In this document: piece after piece, positions 12,766 to 21,155 of the stretch | Layout of the letters: the number at the start of each line of letters is the position of its first letter | Position numbering within the stretch: the stretch's first letter is position 1 | Source of the DNA: Anaerolineales bacterium | GTDB taxonomy: Bacteria; Chloroflexota; Anaerolineae; Anaerolineales; UBA6668 | DNA: 34,539 nt | Direction: 5' to 3' | NCBI GenBank assembly: GCA_020630805.1 | Contig: JAHDIM010000018.1 | Location: forward strand, 1-34,539 | Position numbers and translations under genes: made by a program | The notes under the pieces: model-generated | What the model was told of the DNA's origin: nothing | Databases searched by the model: none | The model's input: the letters and a program-made list of their open reading frames with translations, nothing else

Positions 12766-13458
12766 ATGTCAACCACAATCCTGCTAGTAGAAGATGAGCC
12801 TGCTGCAGCGCAAATGCTGAAGCTCTACTTGGAGGTCGAAGGTTATACATTGGTTTGGGCCGAGGATGGTCCCGCAGCAGAAGCTGCATTTCATGCGAAT
12901 GCGCCGGCCTTGGCGATTATTGATGTCATGCTTCCCGGCTTTGATGGCATTGAGCTTTGCAAGCGCATTCGCAAAACTTCGTTTATCCCCATTATTCTGC
13001 TGACAGCCCAAACCATGGATGTTCAAAAAGCCATTGGGCTTGGGTCTGGTGCAGATGATTACATCACCAAACCTTACAGCCCCGTTGAATTGATAGCACG
13101 CATCAAGGCGTTGCTGCGGCGTAGTTATGATTTCCAGCCACCAGTTGCTCCAACTAAACTGTTAGGCGGCCCCCGCCTTTTACTTGATCCGAAAAAGTTC
13201 ACCATCACGCTAGATGGCATTGAAGTCAATACCACCGTTTTAGAGTTCCGCATTCTTGAAGAGCTAATGCGACATCCTGGCTGGGTCTACAGCCGACTGC
13301 ATCTGTTACAACAAGTCTGGGAAATTGAAGACGAAAGTGGGGTGGAGACAGTGACGGTTCACGTCAGTAACCTGCGAAAAAAACTGGGTGCAACAGGTGA
13401 GCAACTCATCAAAACTGTGCGTGGGGTTGGCTATGTCTATCAAGAAGAAACGTCATGA
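12766..13458 (+). CDS. OmpR/PhoB-family response regulator
   Basis: Response regulator of 230 residues from the ATG at 12766 (the track's TTG at 12754 adds four residues before the conserved TTILLVEDE). The receiver has Asp52 (IIDVMLPGFDG) and Lys101 (YITKPY). A winged-helix Trans_reg_C domain occupies about 135-228, with VTVHVSNLRKKLG as recognition helix and VRGVGYVY as the wing. It pairs with the kinase that overlaps its stop as ATGA. The 11-bp direct repeats upstream of 11005 are its most plausible target. Confidence 0.92.
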   Translation: MSTTILLVEDEPAAAQMLKLYLEVEGYTLVWAEDGPAAEAAFHANAPALAIIDVMLPGFDGIELCKRIRKTSFIPIILLTAQTMDVQKAIGLGSGADDYITKPYSPVELIARIKALLRRSYDFQPPVAPTKLLGGPRLLLDPKKFTITLDGIEVNTTVLEFRILEELMRHPGWVYSRLHLLQQVWEIEDESGVETVTVHVSNLRKKLGATGEQLIKTVRGVGYVYQEETS

Positions 13459-14807
13459 GAAATCGTCTCTTTGTCAGTTTCATTGCTATTGTTGTCACCA
13501 CGGTTGTCGCGTTACTGATCGCGATTCAAACTAATATTGGTGCAACCTTCGATGACTTTCGGGGGGCGCACATAGGGGCGCATTTGCAGCACGTGCCGCA
13601 GGAACTGTCTGCGCACTATCAGACTGTTGGCTCTTGGGATGGCATTGGCCCGGTTCTAGAGCACATCAGCACCACACTCAATATGGAAGTTGGGCTAGTG
13701 GATGTGGATGACAACCTAGTGGCGGCAACCTCTTTAGAGATTAGTGACATTGCCTTCAACTTAGATGTTGAACGTGCGGATTTGGCGGTTGAGATCAAAG
13801 ACCCAGCAAGCAGCGCGGTTGTCGGAACAGCTTTTTTTCGCAGCAGTCCCCTCATCAAACAGCGTGATCAGCTATTTCTGCAACAGCTGTATCGCGTTGC
13901 ACTGTGGGTAGGGCTGAGCGTCCTCGGGCTGGCGGTGCTGCTGAGCTATTGGCTGTCCAATACCATTAGTAAGCCACTCAACCAGCTGAGTCAAGCGGCA
14001 GCGAATATACCCAAAGGCCATTACGACATTGCGGTGGATCGGTCTAGCGACCCTGAAATTGATTCTTTGGTCGTGGCACTGACTCACATGGGCGCGGAGA
14101 TTGGTAAGCTAGAAAAGATGCGCCGCAACTTAGTCACCAATATCTCGCACGACTTGCGCACACCGCTAACTGTGGTCAATGGTTATTTAGAAGGCCTCCG
14201 CAACGGTGCCATTGCAGACCGGCGCACAGCTGAGAAAGTGTTTGAGATTATGCACACTGAGATTCAATATCTCACCACGCTTGTAGAGTCTCTCAATGAA
14301 GTGGCTGCGTTAGATTCGGGCGAAATTCCGTTAAATTACGCTGTTGTCAGCGTACGGTCACTTGTGCGCCAAGCGGTGGATCGCATCAGGCCGAATGCAG
14401 ACTTGCACTCGATACGTGTGCATGACAAGTACACCCACATTGACCAAGACACTTTCATCAAAGTTGATCCCGTCAAATTTGGGCAGGCGCTTTTCAATCT
14501 GCTCGACAACGCCCTGCATTATTCACCGCCCGACGGACGACTCTGTATTGCTGTCACTGCCACGGAGTCCGAACTCTGCTTTGCCGTCAAAGACCGTGGC
14601 GATGGTGTCCTGCCAGAGCATCAGCCGTTTATTTTTGAACGCTTTTATCGCGCTGACCCGAATCGCAACCGGAAACAACATGGCTACGGCATGGGACTTT
14701 CCATTGTGCGATCTGTCGTCCACGCCCACGGCGGGCGCGTCTGGGTAGATAGCAGTGGTGTGCCAGGTGAAGAGACAGTCTTTACCATTGCGTTACCGAT
14801 TGGGTAA
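13455..14807 (+). CDS. Sensor histidine kinase (EnvZ/BaeS type)
   Basis: 450 residues. Transmembrane helices lie at about 5-24 and 148-168, enclosing an extracytoplasmic sensor of some 120 residues with no recognised ligand motif. HAMP follows (about 169-222), then HisKA with His232 (NISHDLRTPLTVVNGY) and HATPase (LLDNALHYSPPDG, DRGDGV, GYGMGLSIV). Its ATG overlaps the regulator stop (ATGA), giving a standard cognate pair. Co-location with a cytochrome and DUF4399 lipoprotein suggests it senses a redox, metal or envelope signal; this is inference. Confidence 0.92.
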   Translation: MRNRLFVSFIAIVVTTVVALLIAIQTNIGATFDDFRGAHIGAHLQHVPQELSAHYQTVGSWDGIGPVLEHISTTLNMEVGLVDVDDNLVAATSLEISDIAFNLDVERADLAVEIKDPASSAVVGTAFFRSSPLIKQRDQLFLQQLYRVALWVGLSVLGLAVLLSYWLSNTISKPLNQLSQAAANIPKGHYDIAVDRSSDPEIDSLVVALTHMGAEIGKLEKMRRNLVTNISHDLRTPLTVVNGYLEGLRNGAIADRRTAEKVFEIMHTEIQYLTTLVESLNEVAALDSGEIPLNYAVVSVRSLVRQAVDRIRPNADLHSIRVHDKYTHIDQDTFIKVDPVKFGQALFNLLDNALHYSPPDGRLCIAVTATESELCFAVKDRGDGVLPEHQPFIFERFYRADPNRNRKQHGYGMGLSIVRSVVHAHGGRVWVDSSGVPGEETVFTIALPIG

Positions 14808-14829
14808 ATAATCTAGGAATGTGTGTTGC

Positions 14830-14851
14830 GCCACGGCTTGCCGTGGCGTTT
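14830..14851 (+). terminator. Rho-independent terminator of the cytochrome/two-component operon
   Basis: GCCACGGC-TT-GCCGTGGC followed by GTTTTAG, 22 bases after the kinase stop. The core hairpin is identical to the one at 10863, and the next bases (GATTC) match too, so the two are a duplicated terminator element. Confidence 0.8.
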
Positions 14852-14980: not shown

Positions 14981-16270
14981 ATGAGGCAAAGGAACAAAAA
15001 GCAACTCAAAACATATAGCAAAAAACTAGGAATTGGCAGCGTGGTTATGTTGATTGTTTTGGCAATATGGCGTTTTACAGGGTATTCACCGCGCTTGGTT
15101 TTTATTGATATTTTCGTGTTTTGTATCAGCTTTATTGTGATGTTGGTCATTACGAGCCAATTCATCCTACCTGTATCGAGTAATTCAGGCAGGAGCCAAG
15201 CATTGTGGCGATTCCTGAGTTATTTAGATCCATGGAATCAGCAGCCAATCTTAGTTGTTAAGGATGGCGAATTAATTGAAAGGCGTGGTGAACGACATAA
15301 ATCAGGGCCAGGTGTTGTGTTGGTGTACCCTGGAAATGCAATTGTGGTGCAAACGCCAACTAAATTTGTTGAGTCTCGAAACTCAGGTGTGGTCTTTCTA
15401 AAAGAGAAACAGCGCCTTCGCGAGTATCTTGATTTACGACCACATTTATTTTTGATCAATGACGTTTACGCGCGAACTAGCGACGGAATTGAAGTAATGG
15501 CAGAACTGAATGTGTCATTCAGGCTTAGTCGACGTCGAAATGGCTCTGAAAGTGCATCACACATCACTCATCCATACGGAGCCCCTTTTGCGGGGCCCTT
15601 GGACAAAGCATTTGATGCTGTGTATCGCGGTGAAGCCGTAGCTCAGCAAGCGGAAACAGCGTATTGGTCTGATTTACCTATCAAGATTGCAGTTGATGTT
15701 TGGCGTAGTGTAATGCTGGATTACAACCTGAACATGTTGTTTCCGAAAGGGTCCGCTATGGTTGGGGCAAAAGGATTGTTAGGAGAAATTGAAGAGAAAA
15801 CGTATCGACGATTAACAACCGACTCTCATTATAAAAATCAAATCAATCCCTTCATGATGGCACCAAGTCAGATTCTTGAACGACGAGGAATTGAGATCAA
15901 GAGCGTCAACATTCAACGGTTATATTTGACCGAGCGTTTGGCAGAAGAGCATGGATCTGAATGGCGTCGTCGTTGGGAGGAGGAGCTTAGTGAACAAACG
16001 CGAAGTGCAGATTGGGATATTACCCAAGCTCGAAATAGTGGCCGCAATATTGCCCAAGCTGCATTTGCAGAAGCCGCACTGAATAACATTGACCCATTTG
16101 GTAGTCATAAGCAAATCAGCTTAGGCATTCTAAATACGATACGTGAATTTCTGAATTTGCACACGATAGGAGTTCAGTTGTCGCACTATCAAGACGTATT
16201 TAGTCATCTCCAGTCTTGGATTGATGATCATACTGATCATGGTGATTGGATTTTTAAACGCAGGATGTAA
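14981..16270 (+). CDS. SPFH/band-7-like membrane protein, first of a pair
   Basis: 429 residues from the ATG at 14981, chosen over the track's GTG at 14897 because AGAGGA precedes it and the extra 28 residues would be read through a hairpin. A basic N-terminus leads to two transmembrane helices (about 17-32 and 37-64). The soluble part has an SPFH-like pattern: SGPGVVLVYPGNAIVVQTP (about 108-126), a strand-turn ARTSDGIEVMAELNVSFRL (about 164-182), and a helical, charged C-terminal half. SPFH proteins assemble into membrane-associated rings that organise proteases, lipids or cell-wall enzymes. The next gene, nine bases away, encodes a larger relative. No known subfamily is recognised; the function is unknown. 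Confidence 0.6.
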   Translation: MRQRNKKQLKTYSKKLGIGSVVMLIVLAIWRFTGYSPRLVFIDIFVFCISFIVMLVITSQFILPVSSNSGRSQALWRFLSYLDPWNQQPILVVKDGELIERRGERHKSGPGVVLVYPGNAIVVQTPTKFVESRNSGVVFLKEKQRLREYLDLRPHLFLINDVYARTSDGIEVMAELNVSFRLSRRRNGSESASHITHPYGAPFAGPLDKAFDAVYRGEAVAQQAETAYWSDLPIKIAVDVWRSVMLDYNLNMLFPKGSAMVGAKGLLGEIEEKTYRRLTTDSHYKNQINPFMMAPSQILERRGIEIKSVNIQRLYLTERLAEEHGSEWRRRWEEELSEQTRSADWDITQARNSGRNIAQAAFAEAALNNIDPFGSHKQISLGILNTIREFLNLHTIGVQLSHYQDVFSHLQSWIDDHTDHGDWIFKRRM

Positions 16271-16279
16271 TAGGGAATT

Positions 16280-18070
16280 ATGAAAAAGATAAACACACAT
16301 CCTCTTGCATTTTTGGCAGTGTTATTTGCGCCATATCAACTCTATCAGAGGGTTAGATTAGGCATTTTTCTAATGATTACATGGCTATATTGGGTGGTGG
16401 TCATTGCAGTTGAAGATCCAGTTACGCCAAATTGGCTCTTGGAAATGCAAGTGGAGAGTTTAGGGCAATTTATTGCAGCAATGGAGTTTATGGCGTGGCT
16501 CTGTTGGCGTCTATTTAATCCTTCAGTTTTGCTGGCGGTTGGACTTTATATTGCGTTTATTGGGGTACTTTGGGTATTAATGTATCTGGTATACGGAGTA
16601 CGTGTCTGGCGATCAAATGAGAATTTTGTAGTATCCATTTTTACGTTTTTATCAGTATTAATCGGGGTAATGATATACGGTGGCGCACTATTCTTTCAGA
16701 CATTAGATCCATTACCACAATCTGTGGAACTCATCTTTACGGACTTTGCTGTCTATGTTGTGTGGCCTGCATCTAATTTGTTCATTACGATGGTGGCACA
16801 ATTTTTTTCTCTTCATGTATTGAAGCATCTGTTTTTTCTTTGGAGTGGAATAGCCACTGCCATCTTCTTAGGTGCAATGTTCGTAGATAATCTGTTTGAG
16901 GCAAAAAACGTTACGAGTGTTTTTTGGCATTTATGCACTGCAATATTTGGCATTAGACAGCAAAAAATAGTTGCTACTGGAGGCGGAGTTCGGAAAGAGG
17001 ATAAGACGAAGATGCTATACCGGATCGGCGGCCCAGGTAAATTAGATGCGCATCTTGGTAGTGCTGCAATTGTCGAATTTGTAGATGCAAATAAATGGGC
17101 AGATGTATTACCAATCGCAAGAAATGGTGATGCAATAAAGCGACGCTTTGAGACAGTCAAACTTGCAGGGTTTCAATATTTGAAAGCGGTTATTGATTTA
17201 CGTGAAAAAGAATTGCACATAAAGGAACTGCCATTTATGACTCGTGATGGGTTGCCAATTAAGGTGATTGATGTGATTGTGCGCTACCGCTTGAGTCGAG
17301 AGCCTGAAGCCCAAAAGCAAGACTTTGACAGAATACCGTTTCCATTTGCAGATCCAGCAATATTTAGTTTAGTCTATCAGCGGCCAAATATCAGACAATA
17401 TTCTTACAATAAGGATCAAGTTCTTGAACGTAATTCCGATAATACGCATCAAAATAATCTAGATGCACAGTGGGAGATGATGGTAAAGAACCGATTGAAA
17501 ATATATTTCAGTCGGCATTTACGTCATTACACATTGGACGAAATTCTACAATTGGATGGCAACAATGAAATTCGCGACAAAATGGCGCAGCAGTTTTTTC
17601 AACGGGCTGATATCTTCGGTGATTTTCAGAGTTTTGGAACTGAACTAATCTGGGTAGGTGTTGGGGCTATCAAAAGTGATCTAGATGCCAAACTTGACAT
17701 TGATAAAGCCCAAATTGAGCGGTGGCAAAAACAAACTTTGGCCGACAAGAAAAAACAAAAGCAATTTATTGCAAACGAGTCTAGCCAAGCGTACACCAAC
17801 GAAATTGTGCGGATATTGAAGCAGTTGCTGAAGTGGTTTCAAGTAAATGTGATTGGTAAACCACCTATGGCTGAAAGCATTAAGACACTAAATAAGGAGT
17901 TTGCACGCCAAATGCGAAGCCTAAAGGAAAAGCTTGGTAGCAGTGCAAGCCCAGAGTTTGTGGCTTTGGTTACGGCCCTTGAGAAAAAATATGGACCGCT
18001 GGACCCGCCCCCGCCAGTCATTATCGGTGGGCAAAATCCTAAAGATCCAAAGCCTGGAAAGCCTACCTGA
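16280..18070 (+). CDS. Polytopic SPFH/band-7-like membrane protein, second of a pair
   Basis: 596 residues. The N-terminal third is membrane-embedded, with hydrophobic helices at about 28-45, 82-106, 116-140, 150-175 and 184-205. A cytosolic region follows with IGGPGKLDAHLGSAAIVEF (about 249-267), a strand pair RDGLPIKVIDVIVRYRL (about 322-338) matching the SPFH pattern of its upstream neighbour, then long charged helices (about 470-570) likely to be coiled coil, and a Pro-rich tail (DPPPPVIIGG). Together the genes look like a two-component membrane scaffold. Codon use seems more AT-rich by eye than in the flanking operons. It converges on purN with only 19 bases between stops and no clear terminator. 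Function unknown. Confidence 0.6.
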   Translation: MKKINTHPLAFLAVLFAPYQLYQRVRLGIFLMITWLYWVVVIAVEDPVTPNWLLEMQVESLGQFIAAMEFMAWLCWRLFNPSVLLAVGLYIAFIGVLWVLMYLVYGVRVWRSNENFVVSIFTFLSVLIGVMIYGGALFFQTLDPLPQSVELIFTDFAVYVVWPASNLFITMVAQFFSLHVLKHLFFLWSGIATAIFLGAMFVDNLFEAKNVTSVFWHLCTAIFGIRQQKIVATGGGVRKEDKTKMLYRIGGPGKLDAHLGSAAIVEFVDANKWADVLPIARNGDAIKRRFETVKLAGFQYLKAVIDLREKELHIKELPFMTRDGLPIKVIDVIVRYRLSREPEAQKQDFDRIPFPFADPAIFSLVYQRPNIRQYSYNKDQVLERNSDNTHQNNLDAQWEMMVKNRLKIYFSRHLRHYTLDEILQLDGNNEIRDKMAQQFFQRADIFGDFQSFGTELIWVGVGAIKSDLDAKLDIDKAQIERWQKQTLADKKKQKQFIANESSQAYTNEIVRILKQLLKWFQVNVIGKPPMAESIKTLNKEFARQMRSLKEKLGSSASPEFVALVTALEKKYGPLDPPPPVIIGGQNPKDPKPGKPT

Positions 18071-18869: not shown

Positions 18870-21155
18870 TCAGTCTAAAAGTTGCACTTCACCCGTGCCT
18901 GTCAGCGTGCCAATCACCGTAACTGGTTCGCTAGCATTGGCAATGATCGTGCCCATATCGCTTTCATCGATAACGGCGACCATGCCGATGCCCATATTGA
19001 ACACGCGGTACATTTCAGTTTGATCAATATTGCCCAGTGTTTGCAGCAATTCAAAGACTGGCGGCGTTTGCCATGCCCCAAGGTAAATGTCTGCACCCAT
19101 GCCATCTGGTAAGGCGCGCGGGAGGTTTTCAATAATCCCGCCGCCAGTGATATGCGCCAGTGCTTTGATCGCACCCGTGTCAATCAACGGCTGAATCAAC
19201 GGGACGTAGTTGCGGTGCGGGGCGAGTAAAGCATCGGCGAGGGTCTGTCCATCGCTCAGCACTTGGTCAAGATCTTGGTCTGCTACCAGCTTGCGGATGA
19301 GCGAGTAACCGTTGGTGTGCGGCCCGCTGCTGGCAAAGCCAATCAGCATATCGCCGACTTGGATGTCCGCTGTGCGCGGCAAAATATCGCCTTGCGCGAC
19401 GGTGCCGACAATTGTGCCTGCCACATCAAACGCCCCATCGTGATAGACACCGGGCATTTCAGCAGTTTCACCACCAAGTAGCGCTGCACCACAAGCTTTA
19501 CACGCTTCGGTCATCCCAATCACGACTTCAGCCACCATTGCTGGTTCCAGTTGCGCCGCGGCGATGTAGTCTAAGAAGAATAGCGGTCGCGCGCCTTGGA
19601 CCAAAATGTCATCCACGCAATGGTTGACAATGTCATGCCCAATGCCGCGATAGCGGCCCAGTTGGGTTGCCAGCTTGACCTTGGTGCCTACGCCATCAGT
19701 TGAGGCCACTAGCGCGGGTTTTTCCACGCGTTGCAGGGCGGAAATATCGAACAAGCCGCCGAATGCGCCAACGCCAGCCAACACTTCAGGCCCTTGAGTG
19801 GAGGCGACTGCATCTGAAATCAGCCGCACGGCTTCGTTGCCCGCTTCAATGTTGACCCCGCTTTCGGCGTACGCACCTTTTGAGGTCGTCAATGCTAGCG
19901 CCTGATAGCCAATATCGCGTCGGAATTGTGCGCCTTCAAAGCTGAGCGTGTCTACGGCGGCGTAAGCGTTGTCTAATGCGGTTTTGAAATCTGCACCCCA
20001 GCCTGTGACGCCAAGTACGCGCCCGCCAGATGTCACCACGGTGTCAGTGTCCAGCGCGGTGCCAGCGTGAAAGACGGTGCTATTGTCTGACTCGGCGTCG
20101 GCAAGGCCAGCAATCGGTTTGCCTTTGGGATAGCTACCGGGGTAGCCGCCTGACGCTAAGACCACACACGCTGCAGCATCGTCTGACCATTGAATGTCAA
20201 TGTCGGCTAAGGTGCCAGTGGCGCAGGCATAGGTGATTTCGAGGAGATCCGTTTGCAATAGCGGCAAGATCACCTGCGTTTCAGGGTCCCCAAAGCGACA
20301 GTTGAACTCTAGCAAGCTGGGACCGCTTTCGGTCAACATTAGCCCTGCGTACAACACGCCAACAAACGGTGTGCCTTCACTGCGCAAACCATCGATTGCG
20401 GGTTGCATAATGTTGGTCATTACCGCCTCAATCAAGACCTGATCGGCAATTGGGGTTGGGGCATAGGTGCCCATCCCGCCGGTGTTCGGTCCCGCATCGC
20501 CTTCTAACAAGCGTTTGTGATCTTGGGCTGGGGGCATGGGCTTGACGGTTGTGCCATCAGAAAAGGCCAACAGTGACACTTCTGGCCCCGACATGCGCTC
20601 TTCAATCACCACTTCAGCACCAGCGCCACCAAAGCGTCCATCTAACATGATGTCACGCAGCGTTTGCTCGGTTTCTGCAGCTGATTCAGGCAAAATGACA
20701 CCTTTGCCAGCGGCCAACCCCGACGCTTTGATCACAATTGGATAGTCAATGGCTTGCGTATGCGAAAGAGCAGCATCAAAGTCAGTGAAGACTTTGTAGC
20801 GGGCGGTTGGTAAATTGTGGCGGGCCATAAAGTCTTTTGAAAAGGCTTTACTGGCTTCAATTTGCGCGGCGGCTTGGCTGGGGCCAAAGACGGGAATGCC
20901 AACCTTGGTCAGCGCATCGCCTAGCCCAGCCGCAAGAGGCGCTTCAGGGCCAATACAGACTAAGCCAATAGTATTTGACTTGGCGAAGTCAATCACAGCG
21001 GCATGGTCATTGACATTTACGCTGACGTTTTTCCCAACAGCCGCTGTTCCGGCGTTGCCAGGGGCAATATACAGTTGGTCAAGTTTGGGGGATTGCGCAA
21101 GTTTCCAAGCAATGGCGTGTTCTCGGCCACCGCTGCCAATCAATAAGACATTCAT
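18870..21155 (-). CDS. purDM: Bifunctional PurD-PurM fusion (GAR synthetase / AIR synthetase)
   Basis: 761 residues. About 1-422 is phosphoribosylamine-glycine ligase (PurD), an ATP-grasp enzyme: MNVLLIGSGGREHAIAWKL at the start, NTGGMGTYAP, and EFNCRFGDPETQ near the metal site. About 426-761 is phosphoribosylformylglycinamidine cyclo-ligase (PurM): ESGVNIEAGNEAV at its start, STDGVGTKVKLA, LGGETAEMPG and SSGPHTNGYSLIRKL. Both halves are full length with intact motifs, in one continuous frame. It catalyses steps 2 and 5 of purine synthesis; step 3 is the next gene, purN. The order GARS-AIRS-GART equals that of the trifunctional animal enzyme; yeast Ade5,7 is a GARS-AIRS fusion. It follows purF across a 93-base gap containing a strong inverted repeat. 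Confidence 0.95.
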   Translation of the reverse strand: MNVLLIGSGGREHAIAWKLAQSPKLDQLYIAPGNAGTAAVGKNVSVNVNDHAAVIDFAKSNTIGLVCIGPEAPLAAGLGDALTKVGIPVFGPSQAAAQIEASKAFSKDFMARHNLPTARYKVFTDFDAALSHTQAIDYPIVIKASGLAAGKGVILPESAAETEQTLRDIMLDGRFGGAGAEVVIEERMSGPEVSLLAFSDGTTVKPMPPAQDHKRLLEGDAGPNTGGMGTYAPTPIADQVLIEAVMTNIMQPAIDGLRSEGTPFVGVLYAGLMLTESGPSLLEFNCRFGDPETQVILPLLQTDLLEITYACATGTLADIDIQWSDDAAACVVLASGGYPGSYPKGKPIAGLADAESDNSTVFHAGTALDTDTVVTSGGRVLGVTGWGADFKTALDNAYAAVDTLSFEGAQFRRDIGYQALALTTSKGAYAESGVNIEAGNEAVRLISDAVASTQGPEVLAGVGAFGGLFDISALQRVEKPALVASTDGVGTKVKLATQLGRYRGIGHDIVNHCVDDILVQGARPLFFLDYIAAAQLEPAMVAEVVIGMTEACKACGAALLGGETAEMPGVYHDGAFDVAGTIVGTVAQGDILPRTADIQVGDMLIGFASSGPHTNGYSLIRKLVADQDLDQVLSDGQTLADALLAPHRNYVPLIQPLIDTGAIKALAHITGGGIIENLPRALPDGMGADIYLGAWQTPPVFELLQTLGNIDQTEMYRVFNMGIGMVAVIDESDMGTIIANASEPVTVIGTLTGTGEVQLLD

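What the first reader, a model, noticed from the sequence alone, without database searches (positions are those of the whole stretch)
14981..18070. Two adjacent SPFH-like membrane proteins with no known subfamily
A two-helix protein and a five-helix protein share a band-7-like strand pattern (GPG..., DGIEV / DGLPIKV) and are nine bases apart. Known SPFH complexes such as HflK/HflC are hetero-pairs, but these are larger, different in sequence and lack the usual partners. They may build a new kind of heteromeric membrane cage or scaffold. Their codon use looks more AT-rich than their neighbours.
Basis: partly seen in the sequence, partly recalled or inferred. Interest (0 to 1): 0.65.

Follow-up and report, generated by a model that had tools for sequence, protein, structure and literature searches.

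The report
Lineage-specific paired SPFH membrane proteins
Two neighbouring genes encode a matched pair of band-7 (SPFH) membrane scaffold proteins that has evolved as a pair throughout one group of Chloroflexota; it is a new subfamily of a well-known protein kind, not a new kind of machine.

Summary
Gene A (14981-16270, 429 aa) and gene B (16280-18070, 596 aa) lie nine bases apart, are AT-rich (GC 0.43/0.41; neighbours about 0.5) and both have an SPFH fold. B exceeds Pfam's Band_7 cut-off. A does not, but 25 of 46 relatives match and its AlphaFold model (pLDDT 86) retrieves HflK/C, stomatin, prohibitin and flotillin. A and B are paralogues (hhalign E 8e-39).

The pair is widespread in Anaerolineae (Chloroflexota): 112 of 114 B genes have A directly upstream, and the A and B trees agree (r 0.96; 0.87 controlling for a linked gene). 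No relatives were found outside the class. The pair matches no NCBIfam SPFH model and neither of two adjacent SPFH pairs of a Chloroflexus-type genome, although an analogous operon pair (SPFH11a/b) is published for Chloroflexi.

Most copies precede pseudouridine genes (psuK/psuG), but that gene order persists without the pair, so it proves little. The window copy is a diverged second copy lacking psuG.

Most likely A and B co-assemble into a membrane-anchored SPFH ring facing the cytosol; hetero-assembly and orientation are inferred, not shown. New member of a known kind.

The parts
14828..14849 (+). terminator-like hairpin after the upstream histidine kinase gene; suggests A-B is its own transcription unit
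   Evidence: 9-pair stem followed by TTT; pattern scan only, number of such sites in the region not above the shuffled expectation
14981..16270 (+). gene A: 429 aa SPFH protein with N-terminal membrane hairpin
   Evidence: ORF; Band_7 E 0.033, below cut-off, but 25/46 relatives match at 1e-3; AF2 pLDDT 85.6 and Foldseek to SPFH structures E 4e-11
15026..15151 (+). A: two hydrophobic helices (residues 16-34 and 39-57)
   Evidence: hydropathy and AF2 helices H2-33, H37-62
15248..15928 (+). A: SPFH domain (residues about 90-316)
   Evidence: AF2 strand/helix order and Foldseek
15932..16225 (+). A: C-terminal helical (coiled-coil-like) region, residues 318-415
   Evidence: AF2 H318-369, H376-393, H401-415
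16280..18070 (+). gene B: 596 aa polytopic SPFH protein
   Evidence: ORF; Pfam Band_7 31.2 bits against cut-off 23.6; AF2 pLDDT 79.9 and Foldseek to SPFH structures E 1e-7
16337..16897 (+). B: membrane region (residues 20-206), 5-6 helices
   Evidence: hydropathy and AF2 helices; low-to-medium model confidence for residues about 60-150
16964..17677 (+). B: SPFH domain (residues about 229-466)
   Evidence: Pfam stretch 304-493; AF2 and Foldseek
17699..17992 (+). B: C-terminal helical region (residues 474-571)
   Evidence: AF2 helices

Best explanation
A and B are the two subunits of a lineage-specific SPFH (band 7) scaffold of Anaerolineae. Each is held in the cytoplasmic membrane by N-terminal helices (a hairpin in A, several helices in B), with the SPFH domain and helical tail most likely on the cytoplasmic side. 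By analogy with solved two-paralogue SPFH complexes, they most likely alternate in a ring or dome on the membrane that confines or shields membrane or membrane-bound clients. The window pair is a second, diverged, AT-rich copy, sister to the pair next to psuG elsewhere in the same genome, and sits between a two-component system and purN. Shown: SPFH homology and fold, paralogy, near-obligate adjacency, co-divergence, lineage restriction within what was searched, position of the copy. Inferred: hetero-oligomer, orientation, scaffold function. Not known: the clients.
For: SPFH: Pfam, AF2 plus Foldseek for both. Paralogy: hhalign E 8e-39 over 323 columns. Pairing: 112 of 114 B genes have A directly upstream on the same strand, about 20 with a 4-base overlap. 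Co-divergence: A and B tree distances r 0.964, 42 of 62 splits shared, none of 999 permutations as high; partial r 0.874 given the linked psuG tree; extra copies (window, tpr-linked, c17-linked) keep both genes. Orientation: in giant A relatives an LVIVD repeat region lies between the first and the second hydrophobic segment, and LVIVD repeats are known from cell-surface proteins (own knowledge), so the SPFH part should face the cytosol; the window A N-terminus has 7 K/R and no D/E; sister SPFH pairs are followed by TPR proteins. Alternation: PMC12624060 states that the solved heterodimeric SPFH complexes alternate their two paralogues.
Against: No multimer prediction was possible, so a shared ring is unproven. 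Loop-charge statistics across the A family are not decisive (2.3 K/R before, 3.1 in the loop, 2.8 after). The window copies lie on long branches (about 1.0 and 1.4 changes per site) and could be drifting. Tree agreement partly reflects shared species history.
Confidence: 0.7

Rival explanations
1. A and B are both SPFH proteins but form separate homo-oligomers with different jobs; adjacency only co-regulates them.
For: Stomatin and QmcA assemble as homo-oligomers (established knowledge); there is no direct contact evidence here.
Against: Near-obligate adjacency with overlapping start/stop, tight co-divergence and joint duplication.
Confidence: 0.17
2. The pair works in pseudouridine breakdown, as a membrane scaffold for PsuK and PsuG.
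For: 91 of 119 distinct B genes are followed by psuG and/or a PfkB kinase closest to pseudouridine kinase.
Against: psuG is in 86 of 101 relatives whether or not the pair is present, and the order PHP-pfkB-psuG persists in genomes where the pair is absent or elsewhere. The window copy has no psuG beside it.
Confidence: 0.1
3. The pair is the Anaerolineae version of SPFH11a/b, the operon-linked SPFH pair of Chloroflexi described in 2009.
For: SPFH11a/b are adjacent, in one operon, and listed for 4 of 8 Chloroflexi genomes.
Against: Two adjacent SPFH pairs in a 5,258,541-base Chloroflexus-type genome show no specific similarity to A or B (hhalign probability at most 13%), while a stomatin-like protein scores 94-96%. 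SPFH11 is described as tightly conserved (78-90% similarity to consensus), unlike A/B.
Confidence: 0.08
4. The window copy is an acquired or decaying accessory pair with no present function.
For: AT-rich, long branches, and no pair beside purN in the sister genome G002.
Against: Both frames are intact with ribosome-binding sites, signature residues are kept, and both genes are retained together.
Confidence: 0.15

Closest known systems
HflK/HflC (SPFH3) of Proteobacteria
   Same: Two adjacent paralogous SPFH genes, membrane-anchored; best Foldseek hit of both models (7vhq).
   Different: No NCBIfam HflK/HflC match in any member; HflK/C have one TM helix each, face the periplasm and bind FtsH, whereas A has a hairpin, B is polytopic, and no FtsH is beside them in the window.
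SPFH11a/b (Hinderhofer et al. 2009, PMC2636767)
   Same: Adjacent SPFH paralogue pair in one operon, found in Chloroflexi.
   Different: Neither adjacent pair found in a Chloroflexus-type genome matches the A or B profile; which of them is SPFH11 was not confirmed.
Stomatin/slipin with NfeD (SPFH1, QmcA-YbbJ)
   Same: Same fold; a stomatin-like protein of the same genome is the nearest by profile comparison.
   Different: No NfeD neighbour; the same genome has a separate slipin locus with an NfeD-like neighbour (L216).
Flotillin, prohibitin and erlin hetero-complexes
   Same: Two SPFH paralogues that alternate in a membrane-attached dome.
   Different: No sequence-level affiliation; shorter helical tail than flotillin; bacterial and lineage-restricted.

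Membership tests
SPFH / Band 7 superfamily (PF01145) | Band_7 profile match | tested here: met
   B 2.8e-7, above cut-off; A 0.033, below, but 25/46 A relatives and 16/48 B relatives match at 1e-3
SPFH / Band 7 superfamily (PF01145) | SPFH fold | tested here: met
   Foldseek probability 1.00; the top hits are SPFH proteins or the SPFH-containing vault protein
SPFH / Band 7 superfamily (PF01145) | N-terminal membrane segment and C-terminal helical region | tested here: met
SPFH / Band 7 superfamily (PF01145) | oligomeric ring or dome | not testable with these tools
   single-chain prediction only
HflK/HflC | match to HflK or HflC family models | tested here: not met
   no such NCBIfam match for any of 94 members at E 1e-3
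HflK/HflC | association with FtsH | not testable with these tools
   no FtsH among the annotated window neighbours; physical association not testable
SPFH11a/b | adjacent paralogous pair in one operon in Chloroflexi | tested here: met
SPFH11a/b | sequence similarity to SPFH11a/b | tested here: inconclusive
   no similarity to either adjacent pair of a Chloroflexus-type genome, but which of them is SPFH11 was not confirmed
Stomatin-NfeD (SPFH1) | NfeD partner gene | tested here: not met
   window neighbours are a histidine kinase and purN; conserved neighbours in relatives are psuG, PfkB, PHP and TPR genes

The most novel reading that the evidence does not exclude
The A-B pairs form a transmembrane sensing scaffold: outside modules (the LVIVD repeat region of giant A relatives) coupled through a membrane hairpin to a cytosolic SPFH ring that recruits partners, including the TPR/S24-peptidase-like proteins encoded beside the sister pairs; the window copy would be a stripped-down version.
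Probability: 0.12. Interest if true: 0.6.

Novelty: new member of a known kind. Interest (0 to 1): 0.33.

Why it matters
It defines an apparently unnamed, near-obligately paired SPFH subfamily across Anaerolineae, with hairpin or polytopic anchors and, in some members, a large repeat region that is probably extracellular. It is an independent natural case for SPFH paralogues kept as pairs, and a candidate for structure work. It does not change how SPFH complexes are thought to work.

Tried and rejected
(1) A natural A-B gene fusion (L110, 959 aa): rejected, because the join is a run of X from unread bases in the assembly. (2) The long B frame in L113 (836 aa): its N-terminus looks like a spurious high-GC extension; not used. 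(3) psuG linkage as proof of function: weakened by the same gene order without the pair. (4) Identity with SPFH11a/b: no profile support. (5) Single-sequence searches against solved structures found nothing relevant; the A profile weakly found stomatin and HflC, the B profile nothing relevant. (6) A first genome-contig scan with B alone found nothing; the alignment scan found 79 loci, all titled Chloroflexi/Chloroflexota or Anaerolineae groups. (7) Weak hits to DUF4229, PTPDL and EzrA: far below their cut-offs.

Full report
What is there. Gene A (14981-16270, 429 aa) and gene B (16280-18070, 596 aa) lie on the + strand nine bases apart, each with a Shine-Dalgarno-like sequence. Upstream is a response regulator/histidine kinase pair followed by a terminator-like hairpin; downstream is convergent purN, followed by further purine biosynthesis genes. 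GC is 0.430 and 0.409 and GC3 is 0.386 and 0.374, the lowest of the window genes listed.

Both are SPFH proteins. B passes Pfam's Band_7 cut-off (31.2 bits against 23.6); A reaches only E 0.033, but 25 of 46 A relatives and 16 of 48 B relatives match Band_7 at 1e-3. AlphaFold models built on 46 and 48 sequences reach pLDDT 85.6 and 79.9. Foldseek against the PDB returns SPFH structures for both with probability 1.00: HflK/C, flotillin, erlin, stomatin, QmcA and prohibitin, plus vault for A. The best hit is HflK/C for both, but E-values across the SPFH families are close, so this does not assign a subfamily. A and B are paralogues (hhalign E 8e-39 over 323 columns). No NCBIfam SPFH model matches any member.

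The pair is a conserved unit. Among the window genome and 100 relatives, 51 of 101 genomes match B and 53 match A. Over all loci read, 112 of 114 B genes have A directly upstream on the same strand, about 20 with a 4-base overlap. Tree distances of A and B correlate at 0.964 with 42 of 62 splits shared, and at 0.874 after controlling for the linked psuG gene. Of 301 genomes drawn from the phylum, 24 match B, all in the same order or class. A pattern scan of about 85,000 species gave 79 loci, all with Chloroflexi/Chloroflexota or Anaerolineae titles; that scan is limited to the chosen peptide patterns.

Where the window copy fits. The same genome carries a second pair (G000:C141, L062) at normal GC, followed by psuG. 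The window pair is sister to this genus-level pair with full SH-aLRT support in both trees but on a long branch. In the sister genome G002 the purine cluster is conserved but no SPFH pair lies next to purN. The window pair is therefore an extra copy, either an old duplicate or acquired from a relative; the AT-richness leans to acquisition or relaxed evolution but does not decide.

Neighbours and function. In 91 of 119 cases the pair is followed by psuG (PF04227, 405 bits for one representative) and/or a PfkB kinase whose best NCBIfam hit is pseudouridine kinase, below its cut-off. This looked like a functional link. But psuG occurs in 86 of 101 relatives, and in genomes where the pair is absent or elsewhere the order PHP-pfkB-psuG persists without it. 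The link is best read as a favoured position in an existing neighbourhood, not as proof of a shared pathway. The genome also has four other SPFH genes over the Pfam cut-off, one of them a slipin with a neighbouring NfeD-like gene (the naming of these from their sequences is mine).

Orientation and assembly (inferred). A has an N-terminal hairpin and its N-terminus is strongly positive. In giant A relatives (about 1500 aa) an LVIVD repeat region lies between the hydrophobic segments. LVIVD repeats are known from surface proteins (own knowledge), so the SPFH domain should face the cytosol; average loop charges across the family neither support nor contradict this. Published two-paralogue SPFH complexes alternate their subunits (PMC12624060). 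I therefore consider an A/B ring or dome on the cytoplasmic face the most likely assembly, but no multimer model or experiment was available.

Relation to what is known. A 2009 survey (PMC2636767) sorted bacterial SPFH proteins into 12 subfamilies and described SPFH11a/b as invariably adjacent and in one operon, with 4 entries for 8 Chloroflexi genomes. I took two adjacent SPFH pairs from a Chloroflexus-type genome (5,258,541 bases) and its relatives; neither matches A or B, whereas a stomatin-like protein of the window's own genome does (94-96% probability). The A-B pair thus appears to be a separate pair, but the SPFH11 sequences themselves could not be read. A full-text search for SPFH with pseudouridine, and for Anaerolineae with band 7, found no paper describing this pair; the library holds open-licence papers only. 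Verdict: a new subfamily of a known kind, of moderate interest.

Noticed in passing
gene after the sister SPFH pair in L072 (9684-10898), L073, L083, L131, L132, L154, L166, L177: A second type of SPFH pair in the same lineage is followed by a TPR protein that often carries a C-terminal S24-peptidase-like domain with an apparent SM...K dyad (Pfam 5.6e-10 in L072). A possible SPFH-linked soluble peptidase or regulator.
   Followed up: partly
L080:5134-9678, and L082, L083, L084, L078, L097: Long A relatives (about 790-1530 aa) have extra N-terminal sequence; LVIVD repeats were confirmed by Pfam in L080 and L078, between the first and second membrane segment.
   Followed up: partly
L062-L117 and L128-L206: The order PHP-domain gene, (A-B), PfkB kinase, psuG, convergent membrane protein is a conserved neighbourhood across Anaerolineae, with the SPFH pair present or absent.
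   Followed up: yes
window 18870-21155: A single 761 aa gene carries PurD and PurM domains; the sister genome has a full-length counterpart, 80% identical.
   Followed up: no
L239:3915-5812 and L240:4615-7358: A Chloroflexus-type genome has two further, different adjacent SPFH pairs, so paired SPFH genes seem to have arisen or been kept several times in the phylum.
   Followed up: partly
window 13455-14807: The histidine kinase next to the pair has no close counterpart in two genomes of the same genus (best 31-32% identity), suggesting the stretch left of the pair is variable; the genome is rich in histidine kinases.
   Followed up: no
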